Of a stretch of DNA of 35,925 nucleotides, positions 4,916 through 35,837 are shown piece after piece. How positions within the stretch are numbered: position 1 is the stretch's first letter; every line of letters starts with the position of its first letter. Below the pieces are notes generated by a model that saw only the letters and a list, made by a program, of their open reading frames with translations, was not told where the DNA came from and did no database searches. Origin of the DNA: a virus; IMG/VR virus record IMGVR_UViG_3300047450_000086, positions 1 to 35,925 of that record. One strand, written 5' to 3'. A program made the translations under genes and the position numbers.

Positions 4916-5365
4916 TCAAACTTTAGCTCCTCCATCAGGCAAGAATTGATTTTGGAATTTTTGACTATCCTCCTCAGACAGTTCAGTTGAATTAACTAGG
5001 AAACTTCCTTCAAGAGACACTTCATTTGTCTTATGCTCATCAATAAATTTTTTAAGAATTCCTAGATATGATTCCACAAGTTCTGGATGGGGTTCATACA
5101 CCACATCAATAAATTCGTGTGAAACATTAAATCCCCTATCATTTGACAATGGAAATAATCTGTGAAATTCAACTCGGCATTCTCCAGTTTCCAATGGTTC
5201 ATCATCTTGAGATGATACTTCAACTCGACCAACTCCAACTTGAGTTACTTTAAATGGGTCACTCATAAAATATCCTACACTTTCATTTCCTTCGGGGTCG
5301 ATCATCTCCCTCAAATCGCAAATTGCAGTTTCTGAATTCTTCAGCAAACAAAGTTTAATACTCAT
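4916..5365 (-). CDS. Sm-like (LSm-fold) small protein, copy A, 149 aa
   Basis: The first gene of the reverse operon, with AGGAAAG upstream of its ATG and a sigma-70-type promoter close by. The N terminus (IKLCLLKNSETAICDLREM) matches the start of four other genes in this window (23064, 30130, 35279, 35586), followed by a shared FMSDPFKV strand, a hydrophobic FHRLFPLS segment and a C-terminal strand and helix (FIDVVYEPHPELVESYLGIL). Sm-like proteins of probable cyanophage origin have been structurally characterised and form rings; membership here is judged from this pattern and not from a search. Role unknown; RNA or protein binding is an inference. The C terminus (about 110-149) is an extra, acidic extension absent from the shorter copies. 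Confidence 0.7.
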   Translation of the reverse strand: MSIKLCLLKNSETAICDLREMIDPEGNESVGYFMSDPFKVTQVGVGRVEVSSQDDEPLETGECRVEFHRLFPLSNDRGFNVSHEFIDVVYEPHPELVESYLGILKKFIDEHKTNEVSLEGSFLVNSTELSEEDSQKFQNQFLPDGGAKV

Positions 5366-21595: not shown

Positions 21596-23067
21596 TGTCT
21601 GACATTATCATTAGAAAGAAGAACGAAGTATATCTACTAATTGATTGTGAACCACATATCAAATATGAACTATCAGAGTACTTTACTTTTGAAGTACCTG
21701 ATGCAAAGTTTATGCCCCAGTACAAGAAGAAGTTCTGGGACGGTAAAATCAGATTGTTCTCTCCTGCTAATGGTGAACTGTACATCGGTCTGCTGCACTA
21801 TCTGATTGAGTGGGCGGAGGAACGAGACTATACTTATTCTTATGAGGAGAATGAGTTCTATGGCAAGGTTGTGGAAAAAGATCCTTACATTTTGCCAGCG
21901 ACTGTAAAAGAATATCTGGACTACCTTACTGAGGGTAGTCAAATTAAACCCAGAGATTATCAGTACAATGCCGTATACAAAGCACTGAAGAACTACAGAA
22001 AGATTATCTTGTCACCTACAGGGTCTGGCAAATCTTTCATGATCTATTCTCTGGTCAGATACTTTACTGCTGCACAACTTAAAACACTGATCATTGTTCC
22101 TAGTATTTCACTAGTGACACAGTTGTTTAAAGATTTCCAAGACTATGGTTGGAACGCAGAAGACTATTGTCACCAGATCTATCAAGGTGAAGCAAAGGTC
22201 TCTGATGCTCCTGTAGTCATCACAACCTGGCAGTCAATCTACAAACTGCCCAAAAAGTATTTTGATTCTTACACTGCGGTGATCGGAGACGAGTGCCATA
22301 CGTTTAAGGCAAAGTCTTTAACAAGTATTATGACGAAACTCCATGAAGCAAAATATCGCATCGGATTCACAGGTACACTGGACGGAACGAAAACTCACCG
22401 TCTGGTTCTGGAAGGTTTGTTCGGATTATCTGATCGGGTTACTAGCACTGCTGATCTTATGAAGCGAGATCAACTCTCGCAACTCAAAATTAAAATTCTT
22501 GCTCTCAGACACGAATCGTGTAAGTTTGCGACATATCAAGATGAGATGGAATACATTGTGACGCATGACAAACGCAATGTGTTCATTAAAAATCTTGTTC
22601 GTGATTTAAGTGGTAACACTCTGGTTCTATTCAATTATGTGGAGAAGCATGGGGAACCACTTTTTGATATGATAAATAAAAATATCGGTGATACCAAAAA
22701 GGTATTCTTTGTTCATGGCGGTGTAGCAGCATCTGAACGAGAAGAGATAAGAAAATTAGCAGAGGTAAATGATAACTGCGTTATCATTGCTTCCTACGGA
22801 ACCTTTTCCACAGGTATCAACATTAAAAATCTCCACAATATTATCTTTGCTTCACCCAGTAAGTCAAGGATCAGGAATCTACAATCTATTGGTAGGGTCC
22901 TTCGGAAGGGAGATAACAAGGCTCAAGCAGTGCTATATGACATTGCTGATGATTTTTCTAGGGGAAGTTATATTAACTACACACTTAATCACCTCAAAGA
23001 ACGAATCAAAGTTTACAACGAAGAGCAATTTAATTATGAAATTATCCCAGTAAACATCAAAAAATGA
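21595..23067 (+). CDS. uvsW: Recombination and repair helicase UvsW
   Basis: 490 residues (T4 503). Superfamily 2 helicase motifs are visible: motif I SPTGSGKSFM (140-149), motif II GDECH (231-235), motif III GFTGTL (258-263), a motif IV-like LVLFNYVEKH, and motif VI QSIGRVLRKG. The N-terminal KKFWDGKIRLFSPANGELYI block is the T4 UvsW-type substrate-recognition domain. UvsW unwinds branched intermediates and R-loops, and in T4 shuts off origin replication late. Its stop overlaps the following Sm-like gene. Confidence 0.95.
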   Translation: MSDIIIRKKNEVYLLIDCEPHIKYELSEYFTFEVPDAKFMPQYKKKFWDGKIRLFSPANGELYIGLLHYLIEWAEERDYTYSYEENEFYGKVVEKDPYILPATVKEYLDYLTEGSQIKPRDYQYNAVYKALKNYRKIILSPTGSGKSFMIYSLVRYFTAAQLKTLIIVPSISLVTQLFKDFQDYGWNAEDYCHQIYQGEAKVSDAPVVITTWQSIYKLPKKYFDSYTAVIGDECHTFKAKSLTSIMTKLHEAKYRIGFTGTLDGTKTHRLVLEGLFGLSDRVTSTADLMKRDQLSQLKIKILALRHESCKFATYQDEMEYIVTHDKRNVFIKNLVRDLSGNTLVLFNYVEKHGEPLFDMINKNIGDTKKVFFVHGGVAASEREEIRKLAEVNDNCVIIASYGTFSTGINIKNLHNIIFASPSKSRIRNLQSIGRVLRKGDNKAQAVLYDIADDFSRGSYINYTLNHLKERIKVYNEEQFNYEIIPVNIKK

Positions 23068-23480
23068 ACGATAAATTCTTCGGCACAATAAAATTAATGA
23101 CTGGAGAAGAAATTGTTGGTTTAGTTGAAGTCCATGAACAAGGGTTACTAATACAGGACCCATTAATATTAGAGGACATGAGTGATTTACACGATCTGTT
23201 AGGCGACAATATTAAAATATCTGGATTAAGATTATCTAAATGGATTAAATCATCAACAGACAATATCTTCTTTATAACTGATGCTAAAATAGTAACAGTT
23301 AACGAACTATTAGAACCAGGACTAACTCATTATAAAAAAGCAGTTGTTCAAATTAATGAAACTGCTAAAGAAAAACTCTCCGAAATAAGTAGGAGAGCAA
23401 ACAAGAAAAAATACAAAGGATACAGAGCATCTGTAGATCAAGCAAGAATCTTCTTTGAAGAACTTTTTAATAATTATTAA
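23064..23480 (+). CDS. Sm-like (LSm-fold) small protein, copy B, 138 aa
   Basis: Starts in the uvsW stop (ATGA). The N terminus FFGTIKLMTGEEIVGLVEV matches the (V/I)KL...(S/T)GE..(I/L) opening of the other copies, then LLIQDPLIL, a second strand set (GLRLSKWIKSSTDNIFFITD) and a strand and helix (AKIVTVNELLEPGLTHYKKA). The C terminus is extended and basic (RRANKKKYKGYRASVDQA), unlike the other copies, suggesting nucleic-acid contact. Family assignment is by pattern; function unknown. Confidence 0.65.
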   Translation: MNDKFFGTIKLMTGEEIVGLVEVHEQGLLIQDPLILEDMSDLHDLLGDNIKISGLRLSKWIKSSTDNIFFITDAKIVTVNELLEPGLTHYKKAVVQINETAKEKLSEISRRANKKKYKGYRASVDQARIFFEELFNNY

Positions 23481-28676: not shown

Positions 28677-29618
28677 ATGAATGACCAGTATCTGTGGGTG
28701 GAGAAATACCGCCCTCGTAAGATTGACGATTGTATTCTGCCTGACAGTATCAAACGCGATCTAAAGCAACAGGTTGCTGCTGGTGAGTTGAATAACCTTC
28801 TGCTTGCTGGTCCTCCTGGTGTAGGTAAAACCACTGCCGCTAAGGCATTGTGTGAAGAACTTAACCTTTCTTATATTGTTATTAATGGATCCGATGAAGG
28901 ACGATTTCTGGACACGGTACGCAACACAGCAAAAAACTTTGCGACGACCGTCTCTCTTCAAGGCAGCAAGCACAAAGTCATCATCATTGATGAGGCAGAT
29001 AACACAGGCAACGACGTACAACTCCTCCTACGGAGTTCTATTGAGGCATATCATAGCAACTGCCGATTCATCTTCACCTGCAACTACAAAAACAAAATCA
29101 TTGACCCCATCCAATCACGATGTTCAGTCATTGATTTCGCATTCAAAGGAAAAGAAAAGGCAGCTATTGCGGGGCAATTCTTCAACCGTGTCAGGACTAT
29201 ACTTGAGAGTGAGAATGTTGCGTATGATCCTAAGGTTGTTGCGGAACTGATTCAGAATCACTTCCCTGATTGGCGTCGTGTTCTGAATCAACTTCAGAAG
29301 TATGGTAATACTGGTAATATTGATACTGGTATTCTTGCCGAGATTACAGATATTAATCTGAAAGGACTCACTGATGCTTTGAAGAACAAAGAGTTTGGTG
29401 TTGTCCGTAAGTGGGTTGTGGCAAATCTGGATAATGATTTCAACATGGTTATCCATCGCATCTATGAGGCAATGTATGATGTTCTTGTTCCTTCCACTAC
29501 TCCTATGGCAGTCTTGGTAATTGCTAAATATCAGTATCAGGCAGCGTTTGCTGCTGATCAGGAGATCAATCTTCTTGCATGTTTGACCGAAATCATGATG
29601 GAATGTCAGTTCAAATGA
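28677..29618 (+). CDS. 44: Clamp loader large subunit gp44 (AAA+ ATPase)
   Basis: 313 residues (T4 319). WVEKYRPRKIDDCILP at the N terminus, Walker A GPPGVGKTT (45-53), Walker B IIIDEAD (102-108), sensor FTCNYKNKI and the SRC box IQSRC that supplies the arginine finger. It loads gp45 with gp62. The TGA overlaps the ATG of the XhoI-like gene (ATGA), whereas in T4 the next gene is gp62; here gp62 is 2.5 kb further on. Confidence 0.96.
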   Translation: MNDQYLWVEKYRPRKIDDCILPDSIKRDLKQQVAAGELNNLLLAGPPGVGKTTAAKALCEELNLSYIVINGSDEGRFLDTVRNTAKNFATTVSLQGSKHKVIIIDEADNTGNDVQLLLRSSIEAYHSNCRFIFTCNYKNKIIDPIQSRCSVIDFAFKGKEKAAIAGQFFNRVRTILESENVAYDPKVVAELIQNHFPDWRRVLNQLQKYGNTGNIDTGILAEITDINLKGLTDALKNKEFGVVRKWVVANLDNDFNMVIHRIYEAMYDVLVPSTTPMAVLVIAKYQYQAAFAADQEINLLACLTEIMMECQFK

Positions 29619-30133
29619 ACTTAAATTTCTTAGATGAGTATTGGAACATTGTTGGTTCCGAGCAAGGTACGCAAGCAATTCGGCAGAACAAGCATTTTGA
29701 ACCTCTCACCAAGTTGCTGTTGGAAACTAATGACTTGGGTATTCCTGAGGATAAAATTCCAGTCAAATATAGACCTTGGAAAAAATGGGACTTGCATTTT
29801 CCTTCACTAGTTACTGCTCTTGAATACAAAAGCATTACTTCAAAGAGTATTGAAAAATGTAAGTATCTTCGTGTAGAAGAAGCATTGGGTTCTGCGATTG
29901 ATTTAAAAAAGCAAAACAGTAATTATCGTTTGGGATTTTTATTAGTATTTGCTTTTCCGTTTGAAAATGATAGAATAATTAATGCCAGAGATTATATGTT
30001 AGATGCTTTCAATAACATGGTTGATGATGGCATCTATGATTTTTTCTGTCCATTGCAAACTAGTTCCATTGGTAATCATTGTGAACTTTCTAAGACCAAT
30101 ACCTTTCAAAAATTTTTGAGTGAAATTAAATGA
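29615..30133 (+). CDS. XhoI/PaeR7I-like PD-(D/E)XK restriction nuclease, 172 aa
   Basis: Matches the remembered pattern of the XhoI/PaeR7I restriction endonuclease family: YWNIVGSEQGTQA near the N terminus (family FWxxRxxQ), EPLTKLLLETNDLGIPEDKI, then the core RPWKKWDLHFPSLVTALEYK followed by RVEEALGSAIDLKK. In this family the core reads KKWDL...LVAAIEFKS...RxEEAxGxAxD. The catalytic PD-(D/E)XK residues would be the Asp of KWDL and Glu-x-Lys of EYK. At 172 residues it is shorter than PaeR7I (about 246), lacking parts of the loop after EYKS and the C terminus, so activity and specificity are uncertain. The ATG overlaps the gp44 stop; an Sm-like gene follows by ATGA. Confidence 0.75.
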   Translation: MNLNFLDEYWNIVGSEQGTQAIRQNKHFEPLTKLLLETNDLGIPEDKIPVKYRPWKKWDLHFPSLVTALEYKSITSKSIEKCKYLRVEEALGSAIDLKKQNSNYRLGFLLVFAFPFENDRIINARDYMLDAFNNMVDDGIYDFFCPLQTSSIGNHCELSKTNTFQKFLSEIK

Positions 30134-30420
30134 ATGTAAAACTAATTCGTATGTCCTCTGGTGAGGATCTGATTACTGAAGTGGTAGATAGCACTGACAG
30201 TACTATCACTGTGAAGAACGCTATTGTTGGTGTTCCATCCTCTCAAGGAACTCTGACTTTCGTTGCATGGTCTCCAATGCTGAGCAAGGAGGTCACTGAG
30301 ATTGAAGTACAATCTAAGTTTGTGGTTTATATCTCTGAACCTGACCAGCAAATTATTAGTCAGTATGAGCAAATGTATTCGCCAATTGCTACACCCGAAA
30401 AGAAAAAACTTATTCTTTGA
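30130..30420 (+). CDS. Sm-like (LSm-fold) small protein, copy C, 96 aa
   Basis: Nearly the minimal form of the family: VKLIRMSSGEDLITEVVDST, a short VKNAIVGVP strand, FVAWSPMLSKEVTEIEVQSK with the FxxWxP motif also seen in copy D, and FVVYISEPDQQIISQYEQMY. It begins in the stop of the XhoI-like gene and ends one base into the next small gene, so it is translated with the nuclease-methylase set. Function unknown; ring-forming Sm-like proteins generally bind RNA or act as protein hubs. Confidence 0.75.
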   Translation: MNVKLIRMSSGEDLITEVVDSTDSTITVKNAIVGVPSSQGTLTFVAWSPMLSKEVTEIEVQSKFVVYISEPDQQIISQYEQMYSPIATPEKKKLIL

Positions 30421-30602
30421 TGCAAGTAAAGACTAATCCTCAGAACGTACAGGAAGCACACGAAGCACTCTTCTATGCTTCTATGAACCTACCTGCCGCT
30501 GCTGCCCATTGTGGTATGACAGTTAAGCAATTGAAGTTAACATTTTGGGAATACCTTAAATATCATGAACCAAACTATGAAGTCTCTCAAGACGCCGCTT
30601 AG
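30420..30602 (+). CDS. Small helical hypothetical protein, 60 aa
   Basis: Starts at the ATG overlapping the preceding stop by one base (an in-frame TTG three bases earlier is not needed). The product is helical, with a stretch AAAAHCGMTVKQLKLTFWEY that resembles a helix-turn-helix: an Ala-rich helix, a GMT turn and a second helix. It could be a small DNA-binding regulator, but this rests on pattern only. Its end overlaps the methyltransferase start by 38 bases. Confidence 0.6.
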   Translation: MQVKTNPQNVQEAHEALFYASMNLPAAAAHCGMTVKQLKLTFWEYLKYHEPNYEVSQDAA

Positions 30603-31395
30603 ATATCCTGGTGGTAAATCTCGCGCCACCAAATATCTTCTTCCAAGATTTCCTCAGGATATTAAAGAATATCGTGAGACATTCCTTGGTGGTGGTAGCG
30701 TTGCTATCGCATTCAGTAAGGAGAATCCAGATACTCCTGTGTGGGTCAACGATTTGTATGAACCACTGTATAATTTCTGGAGAGTATTGCAGGACGATGG
30801 GTACAAGATGCACAAGCGTCTGCAGGAACTTAAGTCTAGGTATCCAGACCAAGCATCAGCAAAAGGATTATTTTTAGAAGCAAAGGAGCTTGTCAATGAC
30901 TATTCCATTTCCCCTTTATTTCGCGCTTGTAGTTTCTACGTTATTAACAAGTGCTCTTTTTCTGGTCTCACTGAGTCCAGCTCCTTCTCCAAGCAAGCGT
31001 CAGATAGCAATTTCTCGATGCTTGGAATTAGTAAACTCCCTGGATACACTCAAATAATTAGAAACTGGAAGATTACTAACTGGTCATATGAAGGACTGTT
31101 TACTGATGATAAGAGTACTTTCATCTATCATGATCCTCCATATGACATTAAAGATAACCTCTATGGCAAGAAGGGAGATCTTCATAAGCGGTTTGATCAT
31201 GATCAGTTTGCTCTTGACTGCGACCGCTACGTTGCTCGTCAAATGATTTCCTATAACTCCACTCAGATGGTCAAGGATCGCTTTAAAGACTGGTTGGCAT
31301 GTAGTTATGACCTGACGTATACAATGCGCTCTACAGGCGATTATATGAATGAACAGAAAGACCGTGCTGAATTACTACTGACTAATTATGAATAA
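30565..31395 (+). CDS. dam: D12-class (Dam-type) DNA adenine methyltransferase, 276 aa
   Basis: All class motifs of an alpha-type N6-adenine methyltransferase: LRYPGGKSRATKYLLPRFPQ at the N terminus, SAM-binding FLGGGSVAIAF, VNDLYEPLYNFWRVLQDD, and catalytic DPPY in FIYHDPPYDIKDNLYG, in the D12 order (SAM motif before DPPY). Length is near Dam and T4 Dam (about 260-280). Relatives methylate GATC, but the target-recognition region differs between members, so specificity is not certain. An alternative ATG at 30577 would shorten the product by four residues. It lies 430 bases downstream of the XhoI-like nuclease in the same run of overlapping genes. Confidence 0.9.
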   Translation: MNQTMKSLKTPLRYPGGKSRATKYLLPRFPQDIKEYRETFLGGGSVAIAFSKENPDTPVWVNDLYEPLYNFWRVLQDDGYKMHKRLQELKSRYPDQASAKGLFLEAKELVNDYSISPLFRACSFYVINKCSFSGLTESSSFSKQASDSNFSMLGISKLPGYTQIIRNWKITNWSYEGLFTDDKSTFIYHDPPYDIKDNLYGKKGDLHKRFDHDQFALDCDRYVARQMISYNSTQMVKDRFKDWLACSYDLTYTMRSTGDYMNEQKDRAELLLTNYE

Positions 31396-31984
31396 GACTG
31401 ATTTTGAATTACTTAAAATTCCTAATTTTCTGAGTTCGGAACAATCTAATATAATTTACGAAAGAATTTTGAAGCAGGAAAATTATGTAAAATCACTTGG
31501 CGAGAATCGTTTTGATAATCCAGGTATCACGAACGGCAAGGAAAAATTGACGCAAAAAGATTCTTTGACTGGTCGCGATTGGTGCTTCAATTGGTTGAAT
31601 GATGAAGTTGTGGGTAAAATTATTATTCCGAAAATAAGAATTGTTTTTGGTGGTAAAGGTTTTGTTCAGTGTTGGGCAAATACTTTTCGTAAAGGAGAAG
31701 GAATTGCCAAACATAAGCATCGCGATCCTATGGTTTCTTTCAGTACTCCTAAAGATTGGACTTGTGTGAATCTTTTTATTGGAGGTCCCCCTGGTCTCGG
31801 CACATGGTTCGAGGGACAGAAACATGAAAATAATCCAGGAGAATTGATGCTATTTTCTTCTAATGTTTATCACTGGGTTCCTCCTAATAACACTGATGAT
31901 GTTAGAATCTCTATTGCAATGGATGTTCATAGTCGAATGATGTCTGGATTTAATGATGATCAATGGTATACTTTAAAACCATGA
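31388..31984 (+). CDS. Putative 2OG-Fe(II) oxygenase, 198 aa
   Basis: Metal ligands appear as H109-K-H111 (followed by RD) in KGEGIAKHKHRDPMVSFS, distal H162 in LMLFSSNVYHWVPPN, and Arg 173 in DDVRISIAMDVHSR, the expected iron and 2-oxoglutarate set. The N terminus (FELLKIPNFLSSEQSNIIYE) is the common start of such oxygenases. Substrate unknown; a nucleic acid or protein target is possible. It overlaps the methyltransferase by eight bases and the following small gene by ATGA, so it is part of the cargo set between gp44 and gp62. Confidence 0.78.
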   Translation: MNKTDFELLKIPNFLSSEQSNIIYERILKQENYVKSLGENRFDNPGITNGKEKLTQKDSLTGRDWCFNWLNDEVVGKIIIPKIRIVFGGKGFVQCWANTFRKGEGIAKHKHRDPMVSFSTPKDWTCVNLFIGGPPGLGTWFEGQKHENNPGELMLFSSNVYHWVPPNNTDDVRISIAMDVHSRMMSGFNDDQWYTLKP

Positions 31985-32178
31985 ATGAAGATAACATCCC
32001 ATACGTTGAACTAGAACTTGATATTGAAGACTGTCGCCAGATTCTGACATCAGTAAAGTATCGTCTAGAGAACTGGCACTTTGAAGATGAAGATGAAAAG
32101 GTACAACTGAATGCCTTGAATGATTTCTTCTACCGCGTTATCCTTGAGTACAACTTTAAAATTGATGGCGAAGACTGA
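31981..32178 (+). CDS. Small hypothetical protein, 65 aa, paralogue of the 11989 gene
   Basis: Starts at the ATG overlapping the previous stop (an in-frame GTG at 31963 is less likely). The product aligns end to end with the 61-residue protein downstream of gp17 (ELDI start, LxxLxDxFYR(V/L)ILE end). Such paired copies in late and early regions suggest a shared small module. Function unknown. It overlaps gp62 by 14 bases. Confidence 0.72.
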   Translation: MNEDNIPYVELELDIEDCRQILTSVKYRLENWHFEDEDEKVQLNALNDFFYRVILEYNFKIDGED

Positions 32179-32548
32179 ACTAAAACACTGGTTGAATTCT
32201 ATCAATCATGAGAAACAAAATATCATGAGTGATGAGAATAAAAATCAGTATCCTCCTTACATCGTAAACCGTTGTTTGTCTGGTTTTATAGATACTATTA
32301 TGGTGGCGAATGAAATGAATATCAATCACCATCTGTCTAAAAAACTACAATATGAATTTTTACTAAATATTGTCAGACCAAAACGGAGATTCTCTCCGTG
32401 GTTGAAGAAGGAACAAATTGATGATTTGGATGCAGTGAAATCTTACTATGGATATAGTAACGAGAAAGCTAAGTCCGCTCTTAGTATTCTTTCCGATACC
32501 CAACTGAGTTCTATTAAACAAAAATTGACTAAAGGCGGTAAACAATGA
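32165..32548 (+). CDS. 62: Clamp loader small subunit gp62
   Basis: 127 residues from the ATG at 32165 (T4 187; cyanophage forms are shorter). TELKHWLNSINHEKQN, YPPYIVNRCLSGFIDTIMVA and RRFSPWLKKEQIDDLDAVKS are the pattern I associate with the cyanophage gp62 family. Position directly before regA agrees with the T4 order 44-62-regA-43. It forms the loader with gp44. It overlaps the preceding small gene by 14 bases and regA by ATGA. Confidence 0.87.
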   Translation: MAKTELKHWLNSINHEKQNIMSDENKNQYPPYIVNRCLSGFIDTIMVANEMNINHHLSKKLQYEFLLNIVRPKRRFSPWLKKEQIDDLDAVKSYYGYSNEKAKSALSILSDTQLSSIKQKLTKGGKQ

Positions 32549-34532: not shown

Positions 34533-35243
34533 ATGAAAACATATAGGGATTTAAAACTTACCCTTCGCTATAATACTCAGTTAAATTCTAAGTTCTGGGT
34601 TGGCGAATCAATGAAACCCGAGGTTCGTGAGGGTTTGATTCGTATCGCTGAAGAGTGGGCAGAGTTTGCGAACATTCCATCCCTTGCTATTATTGATGTC
34701 GTTCTGGTAGGTGGAAATGCCAATTACAACTATACTAAGTATTCTGACTTGGACTTGCATCTTATTGTTTCCAAGGAAGATATTGCCGATTGTCCTGATC
34801 TCATTGATGATTACTTACGAGACAAGAAACAATTATGGGCTCTCACCCATGATATTCAGATTTATGGACACGACGTTGAACTCTATGCCCAAGATAGAAG
34901 AGATTCCGCCCCTTCGGGTCAGGGAGTTTTCTCCTTGGTGAATAGTCTGTGGTTGCGTCGTCCTACATATCAGGATGTAAATCTTGTAGATCCTAACATT
35001 GCCAAGAAGGTAATGCACTACATGGAGAAGATTGATTTCCTGATTGATAACAGAGCAGATGATCGTGCTGCATTTGAGAAACTTAAAGATAAACTGCGTG
35101 ACATGAGAGCATCTGCTATCCAACGCGGAGGAGAGTTTGCTGTAGAGAATCTTGTATTCAAGGAACTCCGTAATCGTGGATACCTAGATAAGATGTCTGA
35201 GCACCTGAGGAACCTTAAGGACACCAGCTTGTCAATTGACTGA
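34533..35243 (+). CDS. Nucleotidyltransferase-fold protein, 236 aa
   Basis: The polymerase-beta-like nucleotidyltransferase signature is clear: VLVGGNANYNYTKYSDLDLH with GG (60-61) and the acidic pair D72/D74, and a third acidic position at D114/E116 in GHDVELYAQD. Such proteins transfer nucleotides to RNA, proteins or small molecules; substrate not deducible here. The N terminus MKTYRDLKLTLRY resembles the start of many T4-like phage proteins. A late promoter and terminator isolate it from hsp20, unusual for a gene amid replication genes; this suggests a role late in infection or in the virion. Confidence 0.82.
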   Translation: MKTYRDLKLTLRYNTQLNSKFWVGESMKPEVREGLIRIAEEWAEFANIPSLAIIDVVLVGGNANYNYTKYSDLDLHLIVSKEDIADCPDLIDDYLRDKKQLWALTHDIQIYGHDVELYAQDRRDSAPSGQGVFSLVNSLWLRRPTYQDVNLVDPNIAKKVMHYMEKIDFLIDNRADDRAAFEKLKDKLRDMRASAIQRGGEFAVENLVFKELRNRGYLDKMSEHLRNLKDTSLSID

Positions 35244-35278: not shown

Positions 35279-35641
35279 ATGGCAGTACAACTTGTCCTTC
35301 TCAAATCTGGAGAAGAACTGTTGACCGATATTCGTGAGATCGTTGATCGTGACACTCAAGAGTCAATTGCAACAGTCTTTATTAAACCAGTTCGTGTTAC
35401 TGTGGTGGAGCAAGCAGTTTTGTCTGAGGGTTCTAGTCAACCTTCAGACAGTGTTTTGAGTTTTGTTCCTTGGTTGGCAACGTCAAAGTCTGAAGAATAC
35501 CTTGTAAAAGAGGATTGGATTGTCACAGTATGTGAACCACAGGATAATATTAAAGAAAGTTACATTCAAAACGTAGGAGTTCGTGATGACAGTGAAAGTG
35601 TTGTTCTTGAAAACGGGTCAGTACCTGATCTCGGAGATTGA
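35279..35641 (+). CDS. Sm-like (LSm-fold) small protein, copy D, 120 aa
   Basis: Begins VQLVLLKSGEELLTDIREIV, the clearest form of the shared opening; then VFIKPVRVTVVEQ, the FVPWLATSKSEEYLVKEDWI block and VTVCEPQDNIKESYIQNV. Copies A and D are the most alike at the N terminus (LLK.(S)..(L/A)..D(L/I)RE(M/I)). TAGGAG precedes the ATG. It overlaps copy E by 56 bases in another frame, an arrangement consistent with tandem duplication followed by divergence. Function unknown. Confidence 0.78.
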   Translation: MAVQLVLLKSGEELLTDIREIVDRDTQESIATVFIKPVRVTVVEQAVLSEGSSQPSDSVLSFVPWLATSKSEEYLVKEDWIVTVCEPQDNIKESYIQNVGVRDDSESVVLENGSVPDLGD

Positions 35642-35837
35642 TGAACGCCCCGATGAGGATACTGATTGTATTCTTATCAATCCCAAACGCATTCTTGGGT
35701 TTGCACCAGAGTGGAAACTTGAGAACTTTATTCCCATGAGTTATCAGAAACAGATTCCTATTAGATCTTCTGATATTCTGACCATCGTTGATCCGATGGA
35801 TAGTCTGCTACAATTGTATCGTGATGCTACTGCTTGA
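35586..35837 (+). CDS. Sm-like (LSm-fold) small protein, copy E, 83 aa
   Basis: Shortest copy: VKVLFLKTGQYLISEIDERP, CILINPKRILGFAPEWKLEN, FIPMSYQKQIPIRSSDILTI and VDPMDSLLQLYRDAT. The start is the ATG at 35586 with GGAG at 35576-35579 inside copy D; a GTG immediately before is not preferred. It ends one base into the gp43 start, so it is translationally linked to DNA polymerase. Confidence 0.78.
   Translation: MTVKVLFLKTGQYLISEIDERPDEDTDCILINPKRILGFAPEWKLENFIPMSYQKQIPIRSSDILTIVDPMDSLLQLYRDATA

What the first reader, a model, noticed from the sequence alone, without database searches (positions are those of the whole stretch)
29615..32178. XhoI-like nuclease and Dam-type methylase in a cargo set that splits the clamp-loader genes
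Between gp44 and gp62, normally adjacent in T4, six overlapping genes are inserted: a XhoI/PaeR7I-like PD-(D/E)XK nuclease, an Sm-like protein, a 60-aa possible helix-turn-helix protein, a D12 adenine methyltransferase, a 2OG-oxygenase-like protein and a 65-aa protein. Seen directly: the KWDL...EYK...RVEEALGSAID core, the FLGGGS and DPPY motifs, and the ATGA overlaps. Known: XhoI-family enzymes are type II restriction nucleases paired with adenine methylases, though usually not with a D12 type. Inferred: the pair could act as a phage-borne restriction-modification-like system that protects phage DNA and attacks host or competitor DNA. The extra Sm-like and oxygenase proteins suggest something beyond plain restriction-modification.
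Basis: partly seen in the sequence, partly recalled or inferred. Interest (0 to 1): 0.85.

Follow-up and report, generated by a model that had tools for sequence, protein, structure and literature searches.

The report
XhoI-like mobile nuclease beside gp44
A shortened relative of the restriction enzyme XhoI, without its protective methylase, sits as an optional one-gene insertion at the end of a replication gene in T4-like cyanophages and behaves like a free-standing homing (selfish) endonuclease gene rather than half of a restriction-modification system.

Summary
The six ORFs are real and the XhoI call is right. The 29615-30133 product is a compact (172 aa) full-length relative of the XhoI/PaeR7I restriction nucleases, with the catalytic residues invariant. 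The restriction-modification reading is not supported. The Sm-like, HTH-like, D12 methylase, 2OG-oxygenase and 65-aa genes are ordinary cyanophage genes between gp44 and gp62. Phage L361 carries the whole set at 97-100% protein identity, without the nuclease. The nuclease gene alone is a 515-bp insertion at the gp44 stop codon. It is found in the same slot in diverged phages, and between the window and L007 it is far more similar (dS 0.30) than every flanking gene (dS 1.5 to saturated), so it moves by itself. Among 29 close relatives, that slot is empty (20), or holds the XhoI-like gene (5), an HNH nuclease (3) or a PDDEXK_5 nuclease (1). Several of these insertions end in a copy of the gp44 3' end. 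Other members sit behind psbD, an SbcC-like gene or a methylase-like gene, the last again as presence/absence. Best explanation: a free-standing homing-type endonuclease gene descended from the XhoI fold. Cleavage of the empty allele is inferred, not shown.

The parts
28677..29618 (+). gp44, clamp-loader large subunit; its stop codon (ATGA) is the insertion slot
   Evidence: PHROG clamp loader 2.6e-126
29613..29619 (+). left junction, AAATGAA, repeated at 30128-30134
   Evidence: 7-bp direct repeat; left edge of blastn colinearity with empty-site phage L361
29615..30133 (+). XhoI/PaeR7I-like nuclease, 172 aa, the mobile gene; 515-bp insertion relative to L361
   Evidence: hhalign E=1.9e-12 to PaeR7I family; W58 D59, E70, K72 S73, R86, E88 E89, G92, D96 invariant in 11 sequences; empty site L361
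30128..30134 (+). right junction, AAATGAA; the ATGA start of the next gene is preserved
30130..30420 (+). 96-aa protein, PHROG 527 / DUF6561-like ('Sm-like' not verified); ordinary cyanophage gene
   Evidence: present without the nuclease in S-BM3, L361
30420..30602 (+). 60-aa protein, PHROG 1920, unknown function; ordinary cyanophage gene
30565..31395 (+). D12 (Dam-type) adenine methyltransferase; ordinary cyanophage gene, not part of the mobile unit
   Evidence: Pfam 7.3e-27; 446 phage records with a match
31388..31984 (+). 2OG-Fe(II) oxygenase-like protein
   Evidence: Pfam 9e-9
31981..32178 (+). 65-aa protein, PHROG 628, unknown function
32162..32548 (+). gp62, clamp-loader small subunit (start codon not certain)
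   Evidence: PHROG clamp loader 3.3e-46 for ORF 32120-32548

Best explanation
The XhoI-like gene is a free-standing, homing-type mobile endonuclease gene. A shortened XhoI/PaeR7I nuclease, separated from its methylase, is carried as an optional single gene placed exactly at the stop codon of a conserved gene (here gp44), so that both neighbours keep their ATGA start/stop overlaps. During co-infection the enzyme most likely cuts genomes that lack it at or near this junction; break repair then copies the nuclease gene into them and gives the carrier an advantage over its competitor. Shown here: nuclease ancestry, orphan status, one-gene presence/absence, movement independent of flanking genes, use of the same slot in diverged phages and by unrelated nucleases, and repeats of the gp44 3' end at several insertions. 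Inferred: catalytic activity, the cut site, and gene transfer driven by cleavage.
For: Empty/filled pairs: window vs L361 (flanks 96-97% nt, 515-bp nuclease-only insertion), L009 vs S-BM3 (gp44 96.7% nt, 521 bp, 18-bp repeat GAGTGTGAATTCAAATGA), L258 vs L251/L254 (91-95% nt, about 612 bp at the stop codon of a methylase-like gene). Independent transfer: window-L007 nuclease 93% aa, dS 0.30, while gp44 fragment, gp62, methylase and regA are 55-81% aa with dS 1.5 to saturated (Fisher p 2e-6 to 6e-26 on approximate synonymous counts); the nearly identical block covers only the nuclease gene. Hotspot: 29 loci with gp44 of 88% or more hold 20 empty slots, 5 XhoI-like, 3 HNH, 1 PDDEXK_5. Repeats of the gp44 end follow insertions in L007, L008, L009 (XhoI-like), L349 and L107 (HNH) and L051 (unassigned): 19-22 of 24 positions against 13-15 background. 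Purifying selection (dN/dS about 0.15 window-L007) and invariant catalytic residues. The short phage form is one clade, SH-aLRT 100. Other locations: behind psbD (L011), an SbcC-like gene (L158). This fits the published description of free-standing homing genes as optional genes between two conserved genes (PMC6083498).
Against: No cleavage assay exists. No co-conversion of flanking gp44 sequence is visible between window and L007, so copying would have to work with very short homology, or insertion uses another route. In the window itself the junction repeat is only 7 bp, and the scored gp44-end copy is at background. Nearly all carriers are metagenomic contigs; no isolate phage in the collection has the gene.
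Confidence: 0.8

Rival explanations
1. Phage-borne restriction-modification-like pair: the nuclease attacks host or competitor DNA and the D12 methylase protects phage DNA.
For: Nuclease of a type II restriction family three genes from an adenine methylase; methylase-like genes also lie near three other family members (L158, L160, L161).
Against: Methylase without nuclease in L361, S-BM3 and 24 survey contigs; nuclease without methylase between gp44 and gp62 in L012; different histories; only 2 of 80 loci with the methylase-like gene have the nuclease. True PaeR7I-type genes, also in prophages, sit beside a large N6 methylase.
Confidence: 0.06
2. A competitor-exclusion or host-DNA-degrading nuclease kept for its benefit to the phage, spread by ordinary recombination, without self-driven homing.
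For: Strong purifying selection; location inside an early replication operon; free-standing phage nucleases can be domesticated (PMC10448857).
Against: Repeated use of exactly the same slot by unrelated nucleases, one-gene boundaries and low occupancy fit homing better than retained function.
Confidence: 0.11
3. A passive or decaying insertion without function.
For: Absent from all 50,697 phage records.
Against: Open frame, invariant catalytic residues, low dN/dS.
Confidence: 0.03

Closest known systems
XhoI/PaeR7I family type II restriction endonucleases (Pfam PF04555)
   Same: Same catalytic core, LP..YRP.K.WDL ... A.E.KS ... R.EEA.GSA.D, and a recognisable C-terminal region.
   Different: 171-196 aa instead of about 240-250; lacks an N-terminal stretch and a central segment; no adjacent N6 methylase; separate clade.
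F-CphI, free-standing homing endonuclease next to psbA in cyanophage S-PM2 (PMC6083498)
   Same: Free-standing optional nuclease gene beside a conserved cyanophage gene; one member of our family lies behind psbD.
   Different: F-CphI uses the Endo VII catalytic motif; ours is XhoI-type PD-(D/E)XK. Cleavage has been shown only for F-CphI.
Intron-encoded PD-(D/E)XK homing endonuclease of bacteria (Zhao et al. 2007, cited in PMC10448857; known to me as I-Ssp6803I)
   Same: Restriction-like fold used for homing.
   Different: Intron-encoded, and no sequence relation to our protein found: no relevant PDB match. The PDDEXK_5 gene in L331 is a different nuclease in the same slot.
Restriction-modification genes inserted with long target duplication (topic of the papers)
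   Same: Insertion flanked by a repeat of target sequence.
   Different: Here one nuclease gene without a methylase, in a T4-like phage, at the end of a replication gene.

Membership tests
XhoI/PaeR7I nuclease family (PF04555) | Conserved WD...E.KS...R.EEA.G...D catalytic core | tested here: met
   Invariant in 6 phage and 5 PaeR7I proteins, A90 nearly so
XhoI/PaeR7I nuclease family (PF04555) | Pfam score above curated cut-off | tested here: not met
   21.6 bits against 25; profile-profile comparison is strong, E=1.9e-12
XhoI/PaeR7I nuclease family (PF04555) | Length about 240-250 aa with N-terminal and central segments | tested here: not met
   172 aa; segments missing
XhoI/PaeR7I nuclease family (PF04555) | PD-(D/E)XK fold | tested here: inconclusive
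   Best AlphaFold2 model pLDDT 83.7, pTM 0.81 but the other four are 39-60; Foldseek hits include PD-(D/E)XK nucleases, none at E<0.001
Type II restriction-modification system | Cognate methylase adjacent and co-inherited | tested here: not met
Type II restriction-modification system | Methylation blocks the nuclease | not testable with these tools
   Needs enzyme assay or methylome
Free-standing homing endonuclease gene | Optional gene between two conserved genes, present or absent in close relatives | tested here: met
Free-standing homing endonuclease gene | Same site in diverged phages; history differs from flanks | tested here: met
Free-standing homing endonuclease gene | Site shared with recognised homing-type nucleases | tested here: met
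   HNH and PDDEXK_5 genes in the same slot
Free-standing homing endonuclease gene | Co-conversion of flanking DNA | tested here: inconclusive
   None seen between window and L007; identity rises only near the junction
Free-standing homing endonuclease gene | Cuts the allele that lacks it; gene is inherited preferentially | not testable with these tools
   Needs enzyme and co-infection experiments
[quoted passage not shown]
   Only XhoI matched in Pfam at E up to 1

The most novel reading that the evidence does not exclude
XhoI-type restriction nucleases gave rise to a new, phage-specific subfamily of homing endonucleases, and the gp44 stop codon is a shared landing site where XhoI-like, HNH and PD-(D/E)XK nucleases insert by one process that copies the gp44 3' end, so that gp44 and the next gene both stay intact and translatable.
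Probability: 0.45. Interest if true: 0.72.

Novelty: new variant of a known kind. Interest (0 to 1): 0.62.

Why it matters
It would show that a classic type II restriction nuclease lineage has been turned, without its methylase, into a selfish mobile gene of phages, linking restriction enzymes and homing endonucleases through an uncharacterised family with matched empty and filled sites. Because at least three nuclease families share one slot with repeats of the target gene's end, it also makes testable how free-standing nuclease genes land between overlapping genes without harming them.

Tried and rejected
Restriction-modification pairing with Dam: rejected by empty sites, survey and history. 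Association with the 533-aa methylase-like gene near L158/L160/L161: tested and weak, 2 of 80. 201phi2-1 weak hit (E=4): the match lies antisense to the annotated gene, chance. S-CAM7 'restriction endonuclease' from the fold search: not among the genes around gp44 of S-CAM7. Solved-structure sequence search: no relevant match. CTCGAG count (0 against 1.25 expected) and GATC count (184 against 205) in the window: uninformative. Junction repeats at L011, L012, L158-L161: none convincing. Literature searches found no report of an XhoI-like homing gene; most subscription papers are not covered.

Full report
What is there. The window is a fragment of a T4-like cyanophage with gp47, gp46, gp45, gp44 ... 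gp62 and regA in order (gp45-gp47 named from sequence and from matching positions in annotated cyanophages). The 29615-30133 product matches the XhoI family weakly in Pfam (2.3e-4, below cut-off) and in PADLOC (4.4e-6). An alignment of six phage homologues compared with five PaeR7I-family enzymes from plasmids gives hhalign probability 97.7 and E=1.9e-12 over nearly the whole length. Eighteen columns, including W58 D59, E70, K72 S73, R86, E88 E89, G92 and D96, are invariant in all eleven sequences. The phage protein is shorter (172 against about 245 aa), missing an N-terminal stretch and a central segment. One of five AlphaFold2 models is confident (pLDDT 83.7, pTM 0.81). Foldseek gave no match at E<0.001, though PD-(D/E)XK nucleases are among the weak ones. 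The family assignment therefore rests on sequence.

The neighbours are ordinary. The methylase matches 446 phage records, mostly cyanophages. In S-BM3, S-SSM4, ACG-2014d, S-MS29, Bellamy, S-H38 and S-H9-2 it lies between gp44 and gp62, with the 96-aa and/or 60-aa proteins in several of them. In 80 IMG/VR contigs found with a gp44 C-terminal pattern, none has the XhoI-like gene. Fifty-one carry both gp44 and gp62; only 6 have them adjacent, 24 carry the methylase, and the gap reaches 6.3 kb. The interval is a variable region of cyanophages.

The nuclease is the odd piece. It has no match in 50,697 phage records, while IMG/VR holds eleven close homologues and five more distant ones (L158-L161; L258). 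Ten of the eleven directly follow gp44. L011 follows psbA-psbD; L158 follows an SbcC-like gene with an ATGA overlap; L159 lies near a single-strand-binding protein gene; L160, L161 and L258 lie at a methylase-like gene. L012 has gp44-nuclease-gp62 with no methylase in the 28.5-kb record, which is a fragment. The short phage proteins form one clade (SH-aLRT 100) apart from about 245-aa PaeR7I proteins of bacteria, archaea and prophages. Those examined sit beside a large N6 methylase, except plasmid DL31, whose shown region has none.

It moves alone. Between the window and L007 the nuclease is 93% identical with dS 0.30, while the gp44 fragment (59%), gp62 (55%), methylase (61%) and regA (81%) have dS of 1.5 or saturation. 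Sliding identity is 55-62% in gp44, 97-100% across most of the nuclease gene and 66% at its end. Three empty/filled comparisons fix the unit. Window against L361: flanks 96-97% identical and the rest of the set intact without the nuclease; the insertion is 515 bp with a 7-bp repeat AAATGAA. L009 against S-BM3: 521 bp and an 18-bp exact repeat of the gp44 3' end. L258 against L251/L254: about 612 bp placed at the stop codon of the methylase-like gene. The assemblies come from many separate metagenomes, which makes chimeras unlikely.

The slot is a nuclease hotspot. Among 29 loci with gp44 at least 88% identical to the window's, the gp44 stop is followed directly by the 96-aa gene in 20, by the XhoI-like gene in 5, by an HNH nuclease in 3 (L337, L349, L354) and by a PDDEXK_5 nuclease in one (L331, Pfam 2.5e-7). 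In more distant phages the slot holds another HNH nuclease (L107, 8.3e-8) and an Endonuclease_7-like ORF (L075). Insertions in L007, L008, L009, L349, L107 and L051 end in a copy of the gp44 3' end (19-22 of 24 positions; background 13-15); the L051 product has no Pfam match. In L007 both copies share a codon (AGT) that differs from L008/L009 (GAG), as expected if each copy came from its own gp44. The copy preserves the ribosome-binding region and ATGA start of the next gene; this functional reading is inference.

Interpretation. These are the hallmarks of free-standing homing endonuclease genes as described in PMC6083498 and for phages generally in PMC10448857: optional nuclease genes beside essential genes, with independent history. 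An orphan PaeR7I nuclease need not be lethal: deletion of its methylase gene did not kill cells (PMC3488263), so loss of the methylase is not a bar. Steps not shown are cleavage, its target, and biased inheritance. The lack of visible co-conversion is the main weakness. For a target within gp44's end to be destroyed by insertion, it would have to span the left junction beyond the duplicated segment; this is inference.

Verdict. Observation confirmed; nuclease identity right; restriction-modification interpretation not supported. A new variant of a known kind: a homing-type mobile nuclease built on the XhoI fold.

Noticed in passing
L331:2017-2652: A PDDEXK_5-type nuclease in the identical gp44 slot, with a partial gp44-end copy at its right junction.
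   Followed up: partly
L349:2287-2760; L337 (minus strand) 407-883; L354 (minus strand) 1382-1858: HNH nucleases in the same slot; L349 ends in a 21/24 copy of the gp44 3' end lying after its stop codon, so the copy is not a coding constraint.
   Followed up: partly
L008 about 2595: A second copy of the gp44 3' end (23/24) lies 917 bp after gp44, behind the 96-aa gene, suggesting a tandem or nested insertion.
   Followed up: no
L051 gp44 slot: A 132-aa ORF with GWDY...IQVKR, possibly another PD-(D/E)XK nuclease, with a gp44-end copy (19/24); no Pfam match.
   Followed up: partly
L012:8446-9003 (minus strand): GIY-YIG homing endonuclease gene on the other side of gp44 in a phage that also carries the XhoI-like gene.
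   Followed up: partly
L160 and L161: In two related phages the XhoI-like gene lies on opposite sides of the same 2OG-oxygenase gene; L160 also has a T5orf172 nuclease next door.
   Followed up: partly
L158:1374-2984, L161:1747-3348: A widespread (271 matched stretches) 533-aa DNA-methylase-like phage protein with only a weak match to N6_N4_Mtase.
   Followed up: partly
window 4916-5365 (-), 23064-23480, 35279-35641, 35583-35837: ORFs resembling the 96-aa 'Sm-like' protein by eye; possible paralogues scattered through the window.
   Followed up: no
window 34533-35243: ORF 55% identical to a Synechococcus phage DSL-LC02 gene annotated as aminoglycoside nucleotidyltransferase.
   Followed up: no
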